From a virus: DNA of 64,000 bases. Below, one piece after another: positions 21,752 to 40,518 of the stretch. The position numbers were made by a program, and so were the translations under genes. The DNA lies in the IMG/VR virus record IMGVR_UViG_3300028920_001457, positions 1-64,000 of that record; one strand, 5' to 3'. The notes under the pieces were generated by a model. The model made no database searches and was not told the origin of the DNA. It saw nothing but the letters and a program-made list of their open reading frames with translations. Within the stretch, counting starts at the first letter, position 1; every line of letters begins with the position of its first letter.

Positions 21752-21828
21752 ATCTTTAATTTTTTGGTTAATTTACACCCGCATAGTTTTGTAAATACGG
21801 GCGCTATCATTATTTACGCGGACTTTAG

Positions 21829-21858
21829 ACCGCCAAAAGACTCCAAAGAACGGCTAAA
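21829..21858. repeat. Intergenic repeat copy 2
   Basis: Second copy of the element at 21372-21401, again just 3-prime of a micro-membrane gene. The adjacent bases GCGGactttagaCCGC (21818-21833) can form a hairpin, matching the arrangement of copy 1. Confidence 0.6.
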
Positions 21859-36043: not shown

Positions 36044-36073
36044 TACCATTACGAAATTCTATCATAAGAAACG

Positions 36074-36098
36074 ACCCGTCAGTGATGGCGGGTTTTTT
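36074..36098 (+). terminator. Rho-independent terminator
   Basis: ACCCGTC (36074-36080), AGTGAT loop, GGCGGGT then TTTTT. Closes the paralog pair. Confidence 0.85.
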
Positions 36099-36133
36099 AT
36101 TGTGTATTGTAATATAAAATAATTGCGAAAATA

Positions 36134-36165
36134 TTTGGTGGATTCAAAAACATGTTTTATATTTG
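36134..36165 (+). promoter_or_regulatory. Bacteroidetes-type promoter
   Basis: TTTG (36134-36137), 20-bp spacer, TATATTTG (36158-36165). Drives the repeat-motif leader and the 584-aa gene. Confidence 0.85.
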
Positions 36166-36196
36166 CAGAAGTTCTTTGAAGGTATAACCGACAAAT

Positions 36197-36235
36197 GGGG
36201 TTCCTATAAAAATACAATTGGATGTAAATTACCCC
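36197..36235 (+). ncRNA. TTCCTATA RNA motif, unit 1
   Basis: GGGG (36197-36200), TTCCTATA (36201-36208), a 23-nt variable part ending AATTA, then CCCC (36232-36235). The flanks pair. Same plan as units 2-4, with different paired bases. Confidence 0.55.
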
Positions 36236-36260
36236 CCGCCGGTTTTCGATACGAGACAAA

Positions 36261-36315
36261 GAGAGTTCCTATAGACCCTGTAAAGGGTCAGCCTCTTAAG
36301 CTGATATTTACTCTC
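36261..36315 (+). ncRNA. TTCCTATA RNA motif, unit 2
   Basis: GAGAG (36261-36265), TTCCTATA, then an internal hairpin GACCC-TGTAAA-GGGTC and CAGCctcttaaGCTG, ending TATTTA, and CTCTC (36311-36315). A T run follows (CGTCTTTTTATTTTT), so it may also end a short transcript. Confidence 0.6.
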
Positions 36316-36340
36316 CGTCTTTTTATTTTTAATAGGTAAA

Positions 36341-36381
36341 GGGTGTTCCTATACAAATCAATGCTTATGATAAATACACCC
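36341..36381 (+). ncRNA. TTCCTATA RNA motif, unit 3
   Basis: GGGTG (36341-36345), TTCCTATA (36346-36353), variable AT-rich part ending TAAATA, CACCC (36377-36381). Ends 20 nt before the 584-aa gene. Confidence 0.6.
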
Positions 36382-36400
36382 CACTTTTAAAATAAATAAC

Positions 36401-38155
36401 ATGAATACTTTAAGGTTATTCAATGCGGTAATCGCAAAAGAATCTACAGAAAAACCCTTCGTTTCAGAAGAGGGATTTATCATTGAATCAAATGCTCTTT
36501 GGGCAAAAAATAGGATATTGGAATTCTATCTCAAGGAAAAGTTAAGTGGTAACGATCTTAACAAAACATTTCACAAATCATGGGCTAAAATTAAAAACAG
36601 CTCTCGGTTTGAATTGTTTGTTGAGCAGATATTTCATTATATTTCTACATACGGAAGTGATTTTCAGGACGAAATATATATTCCCGATGAAGTATTAAAT
36701 GTACCTGACGTAAAGTTGTCATACAAGGTTGTCCGTGCATATTCCAAGGAGGAAATGACGGATAAGTGTTTATCACTATTAAAATCAGGTATAGCATTAA
36801 AGGAGGAAACAATTAATGAGGTGTTATCGGTGCTTGTTGAAGAACTGGATTATTCCTTTACGGGAAATGAGAAAATCAGAAACAAAGAGGCTGTTATAAA
36901 AATAGCAGATATTTATGGCGTTCTGCCCAATGACACCATGGAGTTTTTCAGATATATTATATATCGGGCTACGGGGCAGTCTCTTCTTATTAAGAGCAAT
37001 GATTTGATAATGAAAATTAAAGAAGGGAATTATAATCCGTCGGTTCAGTTTAATAAATTCGGATTAGAAAAATTGGCAACGATATTTAATCGTTTTAAGC
37101 CATTATTCTTGGCATTTAAACCCAAGTGCGGAAAAACGATCAATAAAATTGCGAAGTTGTCTAAAAAGTTTCATAAACCTCTCGTTGTCAACCCCCTTAA
37201 TACCGCAACAAGTGAGCTGATGGGGGATGATGATAGACATTGGTTGGATAATGCTACGCCGTACGCTTTATTTAAAGTATTATCGGCATGTTATACGAGA
37301 GCGAGCGGCCAAGAGTCTTTCGTTTATCGGATTAGAAACGGGAAATCCTGGGTCAAGGAAAAGGAAACTATTTTGAGGGTGAACAAGTTAAATTTTGATT
37401 TCATTATAAAGTATCTGAAAGAAAGATATGATTTATCAGAAAAGAAATTCTTTTTGCCTGCTGATATAAAATATGCCCTTCCTACATCAGAAAAAATGTT
37501 TGTTGGCAATATTCCCACAGGAACGAGATTTTATGGCAGGAAGTTGGCGGTTGGGATATATTGGGAGGACGCATGGGGGGCAAGAGACCTCGATCTTTCG
37601 GGGTTGACGCTTTCAGGGCATAAGGTTGGTTGGAATGCAGAATATGATTATGGCGAAGGACAATTAATGTATTCTGGCGATATTACATCCGCCCCCAATG
37701 GTGCGGTAGAGTACCTGTATGCCAACAAAGGGCTTCGGGAATCGGTTTTAATAAAAAACAATGTTTATTCGGGAAGTAATGAATGTGATTATAAAATCGT
37801 TATTGGGTTGGGGGATAAGATTTCTGTGGATTATATGATGAACCCAAATAATCTTTTTATAGAAGTCAAATGTAAGTCCGTACAAAAACAGACCATATTG
37901 GGGATTCTTACTCCAAAGAAAATGGGGCAGTGCTTTGTATTGCTTAATTTTGGGGCGGGACATGTAAGGGTGTCGGGCAACAGTAAGATATCTAATATCG
38001 CCCTTAAGTCACTATATGAACAATGGAACAAACCGTTTTCATTTAATAAATTGATTAAATTATTGGGGGCGCAGATTGTTGAAAACAAAGAGGATGCAGA
38101 TTATGATTTCTCGTCTGATAATTTAGAAAAAGATTCTTTTATTAAGATATTTTAA
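36401..38155 (+). CDS. 584-aa protein, helical N-terminus and TerD-like C-terminus; possible RNP partner
   Basis: Not firmly recognised. About residues 1-330 look all-helical, rich in Lys and aromatic residues, without a clear motif. Near residues 380-510 the text AWGARDLDLSGLTLSG, LMYSGDITSAPNGAVEYLYAN and YKIVIGLGDKISVDYMMNPNN follows the strand pattern of TerD-type calcium-binding domains (DLDLSA...HSGD). Its leader holds three copies of a paired RNA motif, with a fourth in the tRNA array. An RNA-binding or ribonucleoprotein role, loosely like Ro/Y-RNA systems, is hypothesis only. Confidence 0.6.
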   Translation: MNTLRLFNAVIAKESTEKPFVSEEGFIIESNALWAKNRILEFYLKEKLSGNDLNKTFHKSWAKIKNSSRFELFVEQIFHYISTYGSDFQDEIYIPDEVLNVPDVKLSYKVVRAYSKEEMTDKCLSLLKSGIALKEETINEVLSVLVEELDYSFTGNEKIRNKEAVIKIADIYGVLPNDTMEFFRYIIYRATGQSLLIKSNDLIMKIKEGNYNPSVQFNKFGLEKLATIFNRFKPLFLAFKPKCGKTINKIAKLSKKFHKPLVVNPLNTATSELMGDDDRHWLDNATPYALFKVLSACYTRASGQESFVYRIRNGKSWVKEKETILRVNKLNFDFIIKYLKERYDLSEKKFFLPADIKYALPTSEKMFVGNIPTGTRFYGRKLAVGIYWEDAWGARDLDLSGLTLSGHKVGWNAEYDYGEGQLMYSGDITSAPNGAVEYLYANKGLRESVLIKNNVYSGSNECDYKIVIGLGDKISVDYMMNPNNLFIEVKCKSVQKQTILGILTPKKMGQCFVLLNFGAGHVRVSGNSKISNIALKSLYEQWNKPFSFNKLIKLLGAQIVENKEDADYDFSSDNLEKDSFIKIF

Positions 38156-38156
38156 T

Positions 38157-38290
38157 TATCTTTGCACCATGATTAGAATACAGCATATAGAGCAACCGCA
38201 ACAGCCAAGAGCCGATATTGGGTCTGGATAGGTGTTCTATGTGTTTATAATACAGAGCCTTCTGGACTATTTCAGAGGGCTTTTTTTATT
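38157..38290 (+). ncRNA. Short transcription unit 1 of the tRNA array (promoter box to terminator)
   Basis: TATCTTTG at 38157-38164 (no clear -33), then about 90 nt, then a terminator: AGCCTTCTG (38256-38264) pairs with CAGAGGGCT (38273-38281), followed by TTTTTTATT. Holds GGTGTTCTATG, a variant of the motif seen in the 36.2-kb leader. A leaderless 20-codon frame starts at 38169. The tRNA genes follow directly. Confidence 0.6.
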
Positions 38291-38291
38291 T

Positions 38292-38364
38292 CGGAAGTAT
38301 GGTGTAATCAGGTAGCATACGTGCCTTGGGCGCACGGGGAGTAGTTCGAATCTAATATTTCCGA
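38292..38364 (+). tRNA. tRNA-Pro (UGG)
   Basis: Acceptor CGGAAGT/ATTTCCG (C1-G72 as usual in bacterial tRNA-Pro), anticodon stem CGTGC/GCACG with loop CTTGGGC, T-loop TTCGAAT, discriminator A. Confidence 0.85.
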
Positions 38365-38370
38365 CAATAT

Positions 38371-38442
38371 TGGCACATAGGTTAATGGTAAGACCTCTCG
38401 GCTTATACCCCAGCAGTCCAAGTTCGATTCTTGGTGTGCCAA
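38371..38442 (+). tRNA. tRNA-Ile (UAU)
   Basis: Acceptor TGGCACA/TGTGCCA, loop CTTATAC in a stem with one C-C mismatch, T-arm CCAAG-TTCGATT-CTTGG. UAU reads the AUA codon, frequent in this AT-rich genome. Confidence 0.75.
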
Positions 38443-38443
38443 C

Positions 38444-38515
38444 GGTGGTTATGGTGTAATGGCAACATAACTGTTTGTGGAGCAGTGGTTATCAGTTCGA
38501 GCCTGATTAATCACC
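38444..38515 (+). tRNA. tRNA-His (GUG)
   Basis: Extra G at -1 (38444) facing C73, the His identity pair. Acceptor GTGGTTA/TAATCAC, loop TTGTGGA, T-loop TTCGAGC. Confidence 0.88.
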
Positions 38516-38519
38516 CCAT

Positions 38520-38590
38520 GCTCGGTTCTTCTAACGGCAGGAAATCGGGTTTTCACCCCGGCAATAGCGGTTCAATTCCGCTACCGAGTA
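38520..38590 (+). tRNA. tRNA-Glu (UUC)
   Basis: Acceptor GCTCGGT/ACCGAGT, loop TTTTCAC, T-arm AGCGG-TTCAATT-CCGCT. Confidence 0.85.
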
Positions 38591-38596
38591 CGATAA

Positions 38597-38667
38597 TGCC
38601 TTGTGGTGTAATAGTAACACATAACACTTTGGATGTTATGTTTTCGGTGCGAATCCGAACAAGGCAT
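38597..38667 (+). tRNA. tRNA-Gln (UUG)
   Basis: Acceptor TGCCTTG/CAAGGCA, anticodon stem TAACA/TGTTA with loop CTTTGGA, T-arm TTCGG-TGCGAAT-CCGAA. Confidence 0.88.
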
Positions 38668-38676
38668 CAAAATAAA

Positions 38677-38852
38677 TTTGGAAATTTAAAAATATGTATT
38701 ATCTTTGTACCAATAAAAAACAAAAAATGCAGTTAGTCAGAAAGAATATGGTGAATATTGACCGCACAGGCGCAACCTTGCGAGGGGGTATTCCTATATG
38801 ATTTCTGTAAGAAACAACAGGGATGCCCTCAAGAGATTGGGGGCATTTTTTA
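38677..38852 (+). ncRNA. Short transcription unit 2 of the tRNA array, with TTCCTATA motif unit 4
   Basis: Full promoter TTTG (38677-38680), 19 bp, TATCTTTG (38700-38707). Terminator GCCCTCA (38825-38831), AGAGAT, TGGGGGC (38838-38844), ATTTTTT. In between is TTCCTATA (38791-38798) flanked by GAGGG (38782-38786) and CCCTC (38826-38830), as in the 36.2-kb units but sharing bases with the terminator stem. A 24-codon frame starts at 38727 and ends in TATATGA. Transcript about 135 nt. Confidence 0.65.
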
Positions 38853-38853
38853 T

Positions 38854-38924
38854 TGGCTCATAGTTTAATAGTAGAACGCATCTCTGATACGGATGTAGCC
38901 TAAGTGCGATTCTTAGTGAGCCAA
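38854..38924 (+). tRNA. tRNA-Ile (GAU)
   Basis: Acceptor TGGCTCA/TGAGCCA, loop CTGATAC, T-arm CTAAG-TGCGATT-CTTAG. First tRNA after the terminator of unit 2. Confidence 0.85.
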
Positions 38925-38928
38925 CAAT

Positions 38929-39001
38929 AGCGGGTTGTGTAGAAATAGTATCTCGTCAGTCTCATAAGCTGAAGTTATGGGTGCAATCCCCATACCCGCT
39001 A
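38929..39001 (+). tRNA. tRNA-Met (CAU)
   Basis: Acceptor AGCGGGT/ACCCGCT, stem TCAGT/GCTGA with loop CTCATAA, T-arm ATGGG-TGCAATC-CCCAT. The paired first position argues for an elongator; Ile-lysidine use is also possible. Confidence 0.85.
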
Positions 39002-39005
39002 CAAT

Positions 39006-39077
39006 GGGAATATGGTGAAATGGGTATCACGATGGACTGTTAATCCTTCGTTATAGGTTCAAGTCCTATTGTTCCCG
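39006..39077 (+). tRNA. tRNA-Asn (GUU)
   Basis: Acceptor GGGAATA/TGTTCCC, loop CTGTTAA, T-arm ATAGG-TTCAAGT-CCTAT, discriminator G as usual for Asn. Confidence 0.85.
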
Positions 39078-39081
39078 CAAA

Positions 39082-39153
39082 GTCCTTGTGGTGTAATGGA
39101 GAGCACAAGTGTCTTCTAAGCATTTAGTCAGGGTTCGACTCCTTGCGGGGACA
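39082..39153 (+). tRNA. tRNA-Arg (UCU)
   Basis: Acceptor GTCCTTG/CGGGGAC, loop CTTCTAA, T-loop TTCGACT. Reads AGA/AGG. Confidence 0.82.
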
Positions 39154-39159
39154 CTAAAT

Positions 39160-39234
39160 ACCCTTGTAGGCTCCTTGGTGGAGAACCAGATTGTCACTCT
39201 GGTAAAACAGACGGATCGTAACCGTTCAGGGGTG
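39160..39234 (+). tRNA. tRNA-Asp (GUC)
   Basis: Acceptor ACCCTTG/CAGGGGT, D-arm CTCC/GGAG, perfect anticodon stem CCAGA/TCTGG with loop TTGTCAC, discriminator G. The T-loop is ATCGTAA, lacking the usual TTC, so the gene is slightly divergent. Confidence 0.7.
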
Positions 39235-39239
39235 CAAGC

Positions 39240-39312
39240 GGGTTGCAATGTACCAAGGCTGGCGAGAGACCCTTGCAAGGTTTTTGGCTCGGTTCGATTC
39301 CGAGGCGATCCA
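39240..39312 (+). tRNA. tRNA-Ala (UGC)
   Basis: Acceptor GGGTTGC/GCGATCC with G3-U70, the alanine identity pair. Stem AGACC/GGTTT, loop CTTGCAA, T-arm CTCGG-TTCGATT-CCGAG. Confidence 0.85.
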
Positions 39313-39315
39313 CAA

Positions 39316-39387
39316 GCAGGATAGGTGTTGATGGTTGCATAAGAGCCTTCCAAGCTCAAGGAGTGAATTCGAATTTCACATCCTGCT
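39316..39387 (+). tRNA. tRNA-Gly (UCC)
   Basis: Acceptor GCAGGAT/ATCCTGC, loop CTTCCAA, T-arm GTGAA-TTCGAAT-TTCAC, discriminator T. Confidence 0.85.
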
Positions 39388-39391
39388 CAAT

Positions 39392-39466
39392 GGGCGATTA
39401 GTTTAATGGACAGAATATATCGCTACGGACGATATGGTGAGGATTCGATTTCTTCATCGCCCACCA
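39392..39466 (+). tRNA. tRNA-Arg (ACG)
   Basis: Acceptor GGGCGAT/ATCGCCC, then A and an encoded CCA. Stem TATCG/CGATA with loop CTACGGA. Needs A34 editing to inosine to read CGU/CGC/CGA. Confidence 0.85.
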
Positions 39467-39468
39467 AT

Positions 39469-39540
39469 GACCCTATAATTTCAACAGTAGAATCCCATCC
39501 TTTTAAGATGGTTGTCTTGGGGCGGAACCAAGTGGGGTCA
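39469..39540 (+). tRNA. tRNA-Lys (UUU)
   Basis: Acceptor GACCCTA/TGGGGTC, stem CCATC/GATGG with loop CTTTTAA, T-stem CTTGG/CCAAG around the unusual loop GGCGGAA, discriminator A. Confidence 0.8.
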
Positions 39541-39544
39541 CAAA

Positions 39545-39616
39545 GGCAGGTTAGTTTAAGCGGCAAAACACGTGATTTGTAACCATGAGATACGGCTTCG
39601 ATCGCTGTACTTGCCT
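39545..39616 (+). tRNA. tRNA-Thr (UGU)
   Basis: Acceptor GGCAGGT/ACTTGCC, loop TTTGTAA in a stem with one A-C pair, T-arm ACGGC-TTCGATC-GCTGT, discriminator T. Confidence 0.8.
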
Positions 39617-39621
39617 CAAAT

Positions 39622-39694
39622 AGCCCGATAGTGTAGCGGTTAAGCACGGCACCCTTACAAGATGTCAGCCACAGTTCGAGTCTGTGTTGGGCTA
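39622..39694 (+). tRNA. tRNA-Val (UAC)
   Basis: Acceptor AGCCCGA/TTGGGCT, loop CTTACAA, T-arm CACAG-TTCGAGT-CTGTG, discriminator A. Confidence 0.82.
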
Positions 39695-39712
39695 CAAAAA
39701 AACATAAATATA

Positions 39713-39866
39713 TTTGTTTATTTAAAAATTATTATTAATTTTGCAGATTATGAAAAATCTATGGTGTTCATATAGTTTATTTTCACTCTTGCTCTTGAGG
39801 CGAGGCGGATAAACTATATCTACCAAAGATATATTGAAGCCTCGCTTATAAAGCGGGGTTTTTTGT
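39713..39866 (+). ncRNA. Short transcription unit 3 of the tRNA array
   Basis: Promoter TTTG (39713-39716), 19 bp, TAATTTTG (39736-39743). Terminator CCTCGCTT (39841-39848), ATA, AAGCGGGG (39852-39859), TTTTTTG. Between them an 11-bp inverted repeat, ATATAGTTTAT / ATAAACTATAT (about 39770-39820), encloses GCGAGGC (39801-39807). That can pair with GCCTCGC (39840-39846) and break the terminator. A leaderless 20-codon frame starts at 39750. tRNA genes follow. Confidence 0.65.
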
Positions 39867-39869
39867 TAT

Positions 39870-39942
39870 GGGGAATTGACGTAAATGGCAACCGTATTGG
39901 GTTTAAGCCCCAAGTTTGAGAGTTCGAATCTCTTGTTCCCCA
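39870..39942 (+). tRNA. tRNA-Leu (UAA), compact class I form
   Basis: Acceptor GGGGAAT/GTTCCCC, D-stem ACG/CGT, stem TTGGG/CCCAA with loop TTTAAGC, T-arm GAGAG-TTCGAAT-CTCTT, discriminator A. The variable region is only GTTT, while normal tRNA-Leu has a long variable arm. Confidence 0.78.
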
Positions 39943-39945
39943 CAT

Positions 39946-40018
39946 GGTCGAGTGACGTAACAGGCAACCGTATCCGTCTCAAAAGCGGAGTTTATGGGTT
40001 CGAATCCCATCTTGACCA
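39946..40018 (+). tRNA. tRNA-Leu (CAA), compact class I form
   Basis: Acceptor GGTCGAG/CTTGACC, stem TCCGT/GCGGA with loop CTCAAAA, T-arm ATGGG-TTCGAAT-CCCAT, discriminator A. Variable region GTTT only. D-arm ACG/CGT as in the previous gene. Confidence 0.78.
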
Positions 40019-40022
40019 CAAA

Positions 40023-40095
40023 GCTCAGGTAGTAAATTGGCAAAGCAACTTGACTTAGGATCAAGGATTTGTGAGTTCGAGTCTCACCCTGAGTA
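40023..40095 (+). tRNA. tRNA-Leu (UAG), compact class I form
   Basis: Acceptor GCTCAGG/CCTGAGT, stem CTTGA/TCAAG with loop CTTAGGA, T-arm GTGAG-TTCGAGT-CTCAC, discriminator A. Variable region GATTT. Reads CUN. Confidence 0.78.
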
Positions 40096-40099
40096 CTAT

Positions 40100-40190
40100 G
40101 GATGGCTAAACCACAGTAGGTCTAAGTGGGACGGTCTTGAAAACCGTAGGTCGCTCAACACGGCGTGTAAGTTCGAGTCTTACGCCATCC
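40100..40190 (+). tRNA. tRNA-Ser (UGA)
   Basis: Acceptor GGATGGC/GCCATCC, stem ACGGT/ACCGT with loop CTTGAAA, long class II variable arm, T-arm GTAAG-TTCGAGT-CTTAC, discriminator G as in Ser. Confidence 0.87.
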
Positions 40191-40194
40191 GCGA

Positions 40195-40277
40195 AGGGAC
40201 GGCTTGGCATTAGTGAGCCTAAGAGTCTGTAAAACTCCCGCTTCGGCTGTGGTGGTGCAAATCCATCTCGTCCCACC
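40195..40277 (+). tRNA. tRNA-Tyr (GUA)
   Basis: Acceptor GGGACGG/TCGTCCC, loop CTGTAAA, class II variable hairpin (CCGCTTCGGCTG), T-loop TGCAAAT, A73 and an encoded CCA. Confidence 0.87.
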
Positions 40278-40278
40278 A

Positions 40279-40362
40279 AGGAGAGTAAATCATCAAGGCG
40301 ATGACTACGCCCGCTAAGCGATAGGTTCTGAAAGGAATGGGACTCGGGTTCTCTGCTCTCCG
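40279..40362 (+). tRNA. tRNA-Ser (GCU), somewhat degenerate
   Basis: Acceptor GGAGAGT/GCTCTCC and discriminator G. Anticodon loop CCGCTAA gives GCU but has C at 33 where U is near-universal, and the stem CTACGC/GCGATAG needs a bulge. A long variable arm is present. The T-arm pairs poorly (loop near CTCGGGT). May be weak or pseudo. Confidence 0.6.
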
Positions 40363-40367
40363 CAAAC

Positions 40368-40437
40368 AGGGATACCCATTGGAGTGGTAAGCGGTCTCCA
40401 AAACCGTGATTTGAATGTTCGACCCGTTCTATCCCTG
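40368..40437 (+). tRNA. tRNA-Trp (CCA)
   Basis: Acceptor AGGGATA/TATCCCT, stem GCGGT/ACCGT with loop CTCCAAA, T-arm GAATG-TTCGACC-CGTTC, discriminator G as in Trp. Confidence 0.87.
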
Positions 40438-40441
40438 CTAT

Positions 40442-40518
40442 GGAGAAGTAGCTGAGTCGGTTCAAGCGTCGGACTGAAAATCCGAAGTAGATGAGTTCAA
40501 TTCTCATATTCTCCACCA
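40442..40518 (+). tRNA. tRNA-Phe (GAA)
   Basis: Acceptor GGAGAAG/ATTCTCC (last pair mismatched), stem TCGGA/TCCGA with loop CTGAAAA, T-arm ATGAG-TTCAATT-CTCAT, A73 and an encoded CCA. Confidence 0.87.

What the first reader, a model, noticed from the sequence alone, without database searches (positions are those of the whole stretch)
36197..38852. A covarying RNA motif (stem, TTCCTATA, stem) in four copies, three of them in the leader of a 584-aa protein
Seen in sequence: TTCCTATA occurs at 36201, 36266, 36346 and 38791. Each copy is flanked by different bases that still pair: GGGG/CCCC, GAGAG/CTCTC, GGGTG/CACCC, GAGGG/CCCTC. Changed bases with kept pairing point to a conserved RNA stem. In units 1-3 the bases before the 3-prime strand are (T/A)(T/A)TA or AATA, so an internal loop may be shared. 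Unit 4 overlaps a terminator stem. The neighbouring 584-aa protein may bind this RNA. That would be an undescribed phage RNA-protein system or a new autoregulatory element.
Basis: partly seen in the sequence, partly recalled or inferred. Interest (0 to 1): 0.82.

Follow-up and report, generated by a model that had tools for sequence, protein, structure and literature searches.

The report
tRNA-mimic RNA array with partner protein
The short repeated RNA hairpins in front of this phage gene belong to an RNA class with no match in Rfam, found in many phages and bacteria, which hangs imitation pieces of transfer RNA on a common stem beside one particular protein gene, and in bacteria usually beside RNA-repair genes, so it probably forms a particle that protects or repairs transfer RNAs.

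Summary
Units at 36186-36244, 36253-36321 and 36333-36387 share P0 stem - AHA - P1 stem - UUCCUA ... UA - P1' - C - P0'. The 38791 copy is not a member.

A covariance model built without window sequences finds exactly these three in the window. It finds 2-5 (up to 9) copies per record in genomes carrying a homolog of the 584-aa gene, nearly all just upstream of that gene. In 20 Bacteroidota genomes without a homolog there was no match, bar one weak one.

Both stems covary. The loops between the strands are tRNA pieces: anticodon arms with real anticodon loops (35 units versus 3.3 expected by shuffling; mostly Lys and Asn; window unit 2 shows a Lys(CUU) loop), T-arm/acceptor minihelices, and whole tRNA-like modules, several matching the tRNA-mimic part of Rfam YrlA. 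The last unit sits about 20 nt before the start codon and has its own P0 sequence.

The protein has a helical N-terminal domain without known match and a TerD-like C-terminal domain. In bacteria it usually lies beside RtcB, often beside RlaP.

Best reading: an RNA-protein particle of tRNA mimics, working like Ro60/YrlA but not that family by the tests run here, with the last unit serving autoregulation. Binding and function are inferred, not shown.

The parts
36134..36165 (+). Bacteroidetes-type promoter-like sequence (TTTG at 36134, TATATTTG at 36158-36165) that would start a leader carrying units 1-3
   Evidence: read from sequence and general knowledge of the TTTG / TAnnTTTG consensus; a terminator-like hairpin of the preceding operon at 36073-36094; transcription start not tested
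36186..36244 (+). Unit 1: P0 AACCG/CGGTT, AHA-type bulge, P1 GGGG/CCCC, TTCCTATA 36201-36208, short insert
   Evidence: R1 hit 36188-36242, 36.7 bits, E 5.8e-9; folding
36253..36321 (+). Unit 2: P0 GAGAC/GTCTT, AAA, P1 GAGAG/CTCTC, TTCCTATA 36266-36273, insert = hairpin 36274-36289 followed by an anticodon-arm mimic
   Evidence: R1 hit 37.5 bits, E 3e-9; fold z -2.98
36289..36303 (+). Anticodon-arm mimic in unit 2: CAGC-CTCTTAA-GCTG, loop identical to real tRNA-Lys(CUU) anticodon loops
36333..36387 (+). Unit 3, the gene-proximal unit: P0 TAGGT/ACTTT, AAA, P1 GGGTG/CACCC, TTCCTATA 36346-36353; ends 13 nt before the ATG; probable operator for autoregulation
   Evidence: R1 hit 51.7 bits, E 7.4e-14; GGU-type P0 and 10-30 nt distance to the start codon conserved in last units
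36401..38155 (+). Gene of the 584-aa partner protein: helical N-terminal domain of unknown fold (about 1-350) and TerD-like C-terminal domain
   Evidence: ORF; homologs; AlphaFold2 pLDDT 91; Foldseek TerD 2kxt E 7.7e-5
37493..37960 (+). TerD-like beta-sandwich domain (residues about 365-520), with near-invariant D396, D398, D427, E437
38292..40518 (+). tRNA gene array directly downstream, the usual context of this gene in several of the phages

Best explanation
The leader encodes an array of RNA units, each built on the same base (P0 stem - AHA bulge - P1 stem - UUCCUA/UA internal loop) and many of them presenting an imitation of part of a tRNA: an anticodon arm (often stacked on another hairpin, as the D arm is), a T-arm/acceptor minihelix, or a whole tRNA-like body joined at its anticodon arm. 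The conserved base is most likely the binding site of the 584-aa protein encoded just downstream, and the units form ribonucleoprotein particles with it. The gene-proximal unit, about 20 nt before the start codon, most likely serves as the operator through which the protein limits its own translation. The particles most likely protect or help repair the tRNA pool, either as decoys for tRNA-cutting nucleases or as docking sites for tRNA repair enzymes such as RtcB and RlaP. Shown by computation: the motif, its covariation, its association with the gene, the tRNA mimicry, the position of the last unit, and the RtcB neighbourhood in bacteria. Inferred: transcription, protein binding, autoregulation, protection or repair.
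For: Base: among 265 non-redundant A strands picked by sequence only, the unit's own P1 finds its complement in 141 versus 42.8 with swapped P1 (maximum 58 of 500 trials); P0 119 versus 20.2 (maximum 32); reverse strand 0 of 114. All 10 pairs change on both sides in 60 sequences, including the outermost pair, which was not used for selection. Association: 170 + strand copies versus 1 on the - strand and 0 in shuffled sequence; all 80 bacterial loci; model R1 hits in genomes lie at the gene; of 23 Bacteroidota genomes the 2 with a close homolog have 2-4 strong hits while the 20 without any homolog have none except one at E 0.004, and 1 with a distant partial homolog has none. Mimicry: real anticodon loops on stems of >=3 bp in 35 units versus 3.3 expected, >=4 bp 21 versus 1.1; T-arm sequence in 25 units versus 0.02 expected; whole tRNA-like bodies match Rfam YrlA's tRNA-like part at E 1.6e-5 to 2.5e-6; 62 loci carry a tRNA-like RNA with the element in the anticodon arm. 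Autoregulation: last unit 10-30 nt before the start codon in most of 118 leaders, GGU-type P0 in 84 of 104 versus 2 of 207 other units. Repair context: RtcB within 6 kb in 71 of 80 bacterial loci, RlaP in 56, PrfH in 5, Thg1 in 8.
Against: No expression or binding data. Two thirds of the units have no recognisable tRNA piece, window units 1 and 3 among them. The bacterial loci are dominated by Chryseobacterium, so the RtcB linkage is not 71 independent events. Most phages with the gene lack RtcB (4 of 31 have it) and Rnl1-type ligase (6 of 31). The N-terminal domain has no known relative, so RNA binding rests on location alone.
Confidence: 0.6

Rival explanations
1. Purely cis-acting leader: the units are binding sites for the 584-aa protein (or sensors of tRNA or tRNA-cutting nucleases) that only control this gene; they are never released as RNAs with a function of their own.
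For: All units sit in the leader on the same strand; the last one is fixed at the start codon; unit count and cargo are variable, typically 1-4 per leader.
Against: Whole tRNA bodies with closed acceptor loops and complete tRNA-like RNAs between rtcB and the leader are hard to explain as mere operators; Phass-1 has two clusters away from the gene start and S-CBWM1 has a copy inside its tRNA array.
Confidence: 0.22
2. The element is a mini-intron in tRNA genes: strand B and strand A flank or form an intron removed from the anticodon arm, and permuted copies give circular exons.
For: In L009 (second copy), L064, L081, L105 and L148 removal of the element would rebuild a perfect anticodon arm; in tRNA-like RNAs the element always sits in the anticodon arm.
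Against: Only 4 of 12 non-redundant tRNA-like RNAs give a proper anticodon arm, against 1.7 (maximum 4) for swapped halves; L143, L153 and L161 have too few bases for any 7-nt loop; permuted bodies have acceptors closed by short loops, so no mature tRNA can result; most units carry no tRNA half at all; no Rfam intron match.
Confidence: 0.08
3. A very divergent Ro60 (Rsr)/Y RNA system.
For: Same layout as rsr-yrlBA-rtcBA: RNA-binding protein candidate, tRNA-mimic RNA, RtcB; YrlA model matches the tRNA-like part.
Against: No TROVE match in Pfam; hhalign against TROVE 1.8% probability (shallow TROVE alignment); no Ro60 among the listed Foldseek matches of the full or N-terminal model; TerD in place of vWA; 9 of 24 bacterial genomes carry a separate TROVE gene; Ro60-binding stem of YrlA not matched.
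Confidence: 0.07
4. Type III toxin-antitoxin-like module: repeated RNA units neutralise the protein, which is a ribonuclease.
For: Tandem RNA repeats in front of a protein gene.
Against: Irregular units with different cargo, no clear terminator between repeats and gene, no ToxN-like or other nuclease match, protein about three times the length of ToxN (from general knowledge).
Confidence: 0.03

Closest known systems
Ro60 (Rsr) / Y RNA, in particular YrlA, with RtcB (rsr-yrlBA-rtcBA operon of Salmonella)
   Same: Protein gene next to ncRNAs with tRNA-like bodies joined at the anticodon arm and acceptor closed by a loop; RtcB neighbour in bacteria; also carried by phages. Operon described in PMC7790460.
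   Different: Different base stem (P0-AHA-P1-UUCCUA), protein has TerD instead of TROVE+vWA, several small units per locus showing separate tRNA halves, units lie in the mRNA leader.
Band-7/SPFH scaffold with a tRNA-like RNA in RNA-repair loci (Burroughs and Aravind 2016, from memory; paper not readable here)
   Same: Scaffold-type protein plus tRNA-like ncRNA beside RNA ligase genes.
   Different: No SPFH domain; whether their survey touched the present family could not be checked.
TerD / tellurite-resistance domain proteins, incl. NCBIfam NF041916 MXAN_6230/SCO0854
   Same: C-terminal TerD fold; weak match of about 75 aa; full-length structural relatives in other phages (Siphoviridae ctFn287, Campylobacter IBB35, Lactobacillus LpeD).
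   Different: 22 bits against a 600-bit cut-off; no RING; the LpeD and CP21 phages have no convincing copies of the RNA unit.
Phage tRNAs that replace tRNAs cut by host anticodon nucleases (T5 against PARIS AriB: Lys UUU, Thr UGU, Asn GUU; PMC12409363)
   Same: Lys and Asn are the commonest mimicked anticodons (14 of 35 versus 55 of 564 tRNA genes).
   Different: Here only pieces or permuted tRNA bodies on a common base; not tRNA genes.

Membership tests
Ro60 / TROVE protein family | TROVE domain | tested here: not met
   No Pfam TROVE match in 46 homologs; hhalign 1.8%; Foldseek none listed. The TROVE profile used for hhalign was shallow.
Ro60 / TROVE protein family | C-terminal vWA domain | tested here: not met
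   C-terminal half matches TerD
YrlA Y RNA (Rfam RF02553) | tRNA-like module with closed acceptor, joined at the anticodon stem | tested here: met
   In a subset of loci: L064, L009, L051, E 1.6e-5 to 2.5e-6; not in the window
YrlA Y RNA (Rfam RF02553) | Ro60-binding outer stem and gathering score 69 bits | tested here: not met
   Best 37 bits; model positions 1-22 and 88-114 unmatched
TerD superfamily | TerD beta-sandwich fold | tested here: met
   2kxt E 7.7e-5, probability 1.00, TM 0.56 by target length; not detected by Pfam at sequence level
NCBIfam NF041916 MXAN_6230/SCO0854 | Score over 600-bit cut-off, RING domain | tested here: not met
   About 22 bits over about 75 aa
Self-splicing or other known introns, T-box, riboswitches, other Rfam families | Match to a curated covariance model | tested here: not met
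   Only chance-level matches at 36100-36450; gathering scan of the window gives only tRNAs and a twister
tRNA genes with intron | Removal of the element restores a canonical anticodon arm | tested here: inconclusive
   4 of 12
Type III toxin-antitoxin (ToxIN) | ToxN-like endoribonuclease | tested here: not met
   No Pfam, PADLOC or fold match
RNA-binding autoregulator | Protein binds the unit RNA | not testable with these tools
   Needs a binding assay

The most novel reading that the evidence does not exclude
A new kind of RNA-protein particle, shared by phages and bacteria, in which one dedicated protein carries a set of small RNAs that imitate single tRNA halves with chosen anticodon loops (above all Lys and Asn) as decoys or sensors for tRNA-cutting defence nucleases; cleavage or occupancy of the unit at the start codon reports the attack to the protein's own gene.
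Probability: 0.3. Interest if true: 0.92.

Novelty: new variant of a known kind. Interest (0 to 1): 0.8.

Why it matters
If true, it adds a second protein family, distinct from Ro60/Y RNA by the tests here, to the tRNA-mimic particles tied to RNA repair. It ties phage tRNA arrays to a dedicated RNA-protein system, and it gives cultured test systems (Chryseobacterium, cyanophages S-CRM01 and S-CBWM1). The choice of mimicked anticodons makes a direct prediction about which tRNA nucleases it meets. The structured RNA has no match in Rfam 15 and the protein no family match in Pfam or PHROGs.

Tried and rejected
Fourth copy at 38791: rejected. Chance: rejected. Mini-intron / circular exon idea, my first reading after seeing permuted tRNAs in L009 and S-CRM01: kept as a minor rival. 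Ro60 homology suggested by eye from sequence: not confirmed. NF041916 membership: only TerD overlap. Type III toxin-antitoxin and known defence systems: no match. RNA ligases as constant phage partners: RtcB in 4 of 31 and Rnl1-type in 6 of 31 phage records, none in this phage record of 77 kb. Full-length structural relatives in LpeD and CP21: no convincing RNA units there. MFE folding of single units is not informative for units 1 and 3. Literature searches found nothing describing this RNA or protein in the open-access library; key subscription papers (Chen 2014, Sim 2020, Burroughs and Aravind 2016) were not held.
Full report
What is in the window. The window is part of a 77,443-base phage contig from IMG/VR whose large terminase resembles those of Cellulophaga and Flavobacterium phages. 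The 584-aa gene (36401-38155) lies directly before an array of 18-19 tRNA genes. TTCCTATA occurs at the four stated places, but as an 8-mer it is unremarkable. The structure around it is not. Reading all copies together gives a consensus P0 stem - A[ACU][AC] - P1 stem of five pairs ending in G - UUCCUA - variable insert - UA - P1' - C - P0'. Window units 1, 2 and 3 fit it. Unit 4 does not: a covariance model made only from other genomes finds the three leader units and nothing else in the window up to E 10, the bases in front of TTCC at 38791 do not pair with anything after UA, and TTCC there is paired in another hairpin next to a terminator.

Is the structure real? Strand A was picked by sequence only (A[ACT][ACT]NNNNGTTCCT) in all loci, 265 cases after removing near-duplicates. 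The unit's own P1 found its complement downstream in 141, against 42.8 when P1s were swapped between units (maximum 58 in 500). With the unit's own P0 as well, 119, against 20.2 with swapped P0 (maximum 32). On the reverse strand, 0 of 114 had both. In a 60-sequence alignment without window sequences all ten pairs show changes on both sides. The outermost pair, which had not been used for selecting sequences, is kept in 44 of 60 with 30 double changes.

Is it tied to the gene? Homologs of the protein were found in 71 viral loci, in cyanophages S-CRM01 and S-CBWM1 and the gut phage Phass-1, and in bacterial chromosomes, mainly Chryseobacterium and other Flavobacteriia (182 loci, 80 fetched). 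Strict units: 170 on the coding strand of the viral loci and window, 1 on the other strand, 0 in shuffled sequence; at least one in each of the 80 bacterial loci. Genome-wide searches with the model hit the gene's own surroundings in 8 bacterial genomes and the phages (one extra hit at E 0.04, and further copies away from the gene start in Phass-1 and S-CBWM1). In a draw of 23 Bacteroidota genomes, the two with a close homolog had 2 and 4 strong hits directly upstream of it; 20 without a homolog had none apart from one at E 0.004; one genome with only a distant partial homolog had none.

What do the inserts carry? Inserts are mostly 20-35 nt, with further classes at 40-70 and about 86-103 nt. 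Hairpins with a 7-nt loop and U at the second loop position are in clear excess (61 units versus 21). Comparison with anticodon loops of 564 real tRNAs from the same loci gave 35 units with an exact anticodon loop on a stem of at least 3 bp, against 3.3 in shuffles (maximum 9), and 21 against 1.1 for 4 bp; equal-length flanking windows gave 7 per 191. Commonest are Lys UUU and Asn GUU, enriched over the tRNA genes present (14 of 35 versus 55 of 564). A recurrent form is a stable hairpin followed by the anticodon arm, as in window unit 2 (hairpin GACCC..GGGTC, then CAGC-CTCTTAA-GCTG, Lys CUU), Winogradskyella L083 (Gln), L123 (Lys), L064 (Tyr, Ile), L081 (Asn) and Phass-1 (Lys). This resembles the D-arm/anticodon half of tRNA. 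A second form is a T arm followed by an acceptor-like hairpin (L083, L123, L147, L154 and others), the other half. T-arm sequence occurs in 25 units against 0.02 expected. A third form is a whole tRNA body opened in the anticodon arm, with the acceptor closed by a short loop such as UUCG (L008, L009 twice, S-CRM01, L051, L064, L081). The Rfam YrlA model recognises such bodies in L064, L009 and L051 (E 1.6e-5 to 2.5e-6) but not the base stem, so they stay below its curated score. A fourth form, in 62 loci, is a tRNA-like RNA with open acceptor whose anticodon arm holds the element in the opposite order (strand B, loop, strand A); in Chryseobacterium it lies between rtcB and the gene.

Position of the last unit. 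In most of 118 leaders the last unit ends 10-30 nt before the start codon (mode 19-20), and its P0 ends in GGU in 84 of 104 against 2 of 207 for the other units. In the window, unit 3 ends 13 nt before the ATG with AGGT/ACTT. This is what a translational operator would look like. The upstream units have GGC or GAC and vary in number and cargo.

The protein. AlphaFold2 with 46 homologs gives a confident model (pLDDT 91). The C-terminal part matches TerD (Foldseek E 7.7e-5), with near-invariant D396, D398, D427 and E437. The N-terminal 350 residues are helical with invariant R231, K233, N248, H258, R312 and N313 and match no solved structure significantly. No Pfam, PHROG or PADLOC family fits. 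NF041916 overlaps only in about 75 residues of the TerD part at 22 bits. Larger TerD proteins of other phages resemble it over the full length, but the two whose phages were checked (LpeD, CP21) lack convincing units, so the RNA goes with this subfamily.

Neighbourhood. In bacteria RtcB lies within 6 kb in 71 of 80 loci, a WYL regulator in 65, RlaP in 56, PrfH in 5, Thg1 in 8. Most of these are Chryseobacterium, but Winogradskyella, Tenacibaculum and Flavobacterium share RtcB. In phages the context is often tRNA arrays; RNA ligases are the exception.

How it probably works. The common base is most economically a protein-binding site, and the only constant protein is the neighbour. Much of the cargo imitates tRNA, and the bacterial neighbourhood is RNA repair. 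A particle of the protein with tRNA-mimic RNAs that serves the upkeep of tRNAs, as a decoy for nucleases or a docking platform for repair enzymes, explains all of this; the last unit would close a feedback loop. Lys and Asn are targets of the PARIS nuclease AriB (PMC12409363), and uridine-rich anticodons are targets of Cas13a (PMC11042736); this fits the decoy version for phages but proves nothing.

Against the intron reading. Removal of the element would restore a perfect anticodon arm in some cases, but only in 4 of 12 non-redundant tRNA-like RNAs, against 1.7 (maximum 4) with swapped halves. Several have no room for an anticodon loop, and the permuted bodies cannot become mature tRNAs. A tRNA mimic with the element set into the anticodon arm explains both groups.

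Relation to known systems. It works like Ro60/YrlA (layout, tRNA mimicry, RtcB; PMC7790460), but TROVE was tested and not found, and a separate TROVE gene exists in 9 of 24 of the bacterial genomes examined. The hhalign test used a shallow TROVE alignment, so very remote kinship is not excluded. From memory, Burroughs and Aravind (2016) described Band-7 scaffolds with a tRNA-like RNA in repair loci; that paper could not be read here, and whether it touches this family is open.

Noticed in passing
window 21760-21840, - strand: Type-P3 twister ribozyme, 59 bits, above the Rfam gathering score.
   Followed up: no
window 38694-38848: Promoter-like TATCTTTG, a short ORF ending TTCCTATATGA at 38801, then two mutually exclusive hairpins (anti-terminator-like and terminator) just before tRNA-Ile at 38854: looks like a leader-peptide attenuator for the second half of the tRNA array.
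   Followed up: partly
L082 10485-13582 and L116 494-4229: RNA-repair islands next to the gene: two RlaP, Thg1 and an AAA_33 kinase-like gene in Chryseobacterium; RtcB with PrfH in Tenacibaculum.
   Followed up: partly
L010 4460-5110 (S-CRM01): About 650 nt without annotated gene between tRNA-Trp and tRNA-Asn, possibly a large structured RNA.
   Followed up: no
Phass-1 OQ749652 92.6-93.05 kb and 105.7-107.2 kb: Nine model hits in two clusters, neither in the leader of the 584-aa homolog, so the units can be encoded apart from the gene start.
   Followed up: partly
BFVD A0A8S5LVH0, H6SUA9, A0A291I9M6: Full-length structural relatives of the protein in phages of other hosts; their partner RNAs, if any, are unknown.
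   Followed up: partly
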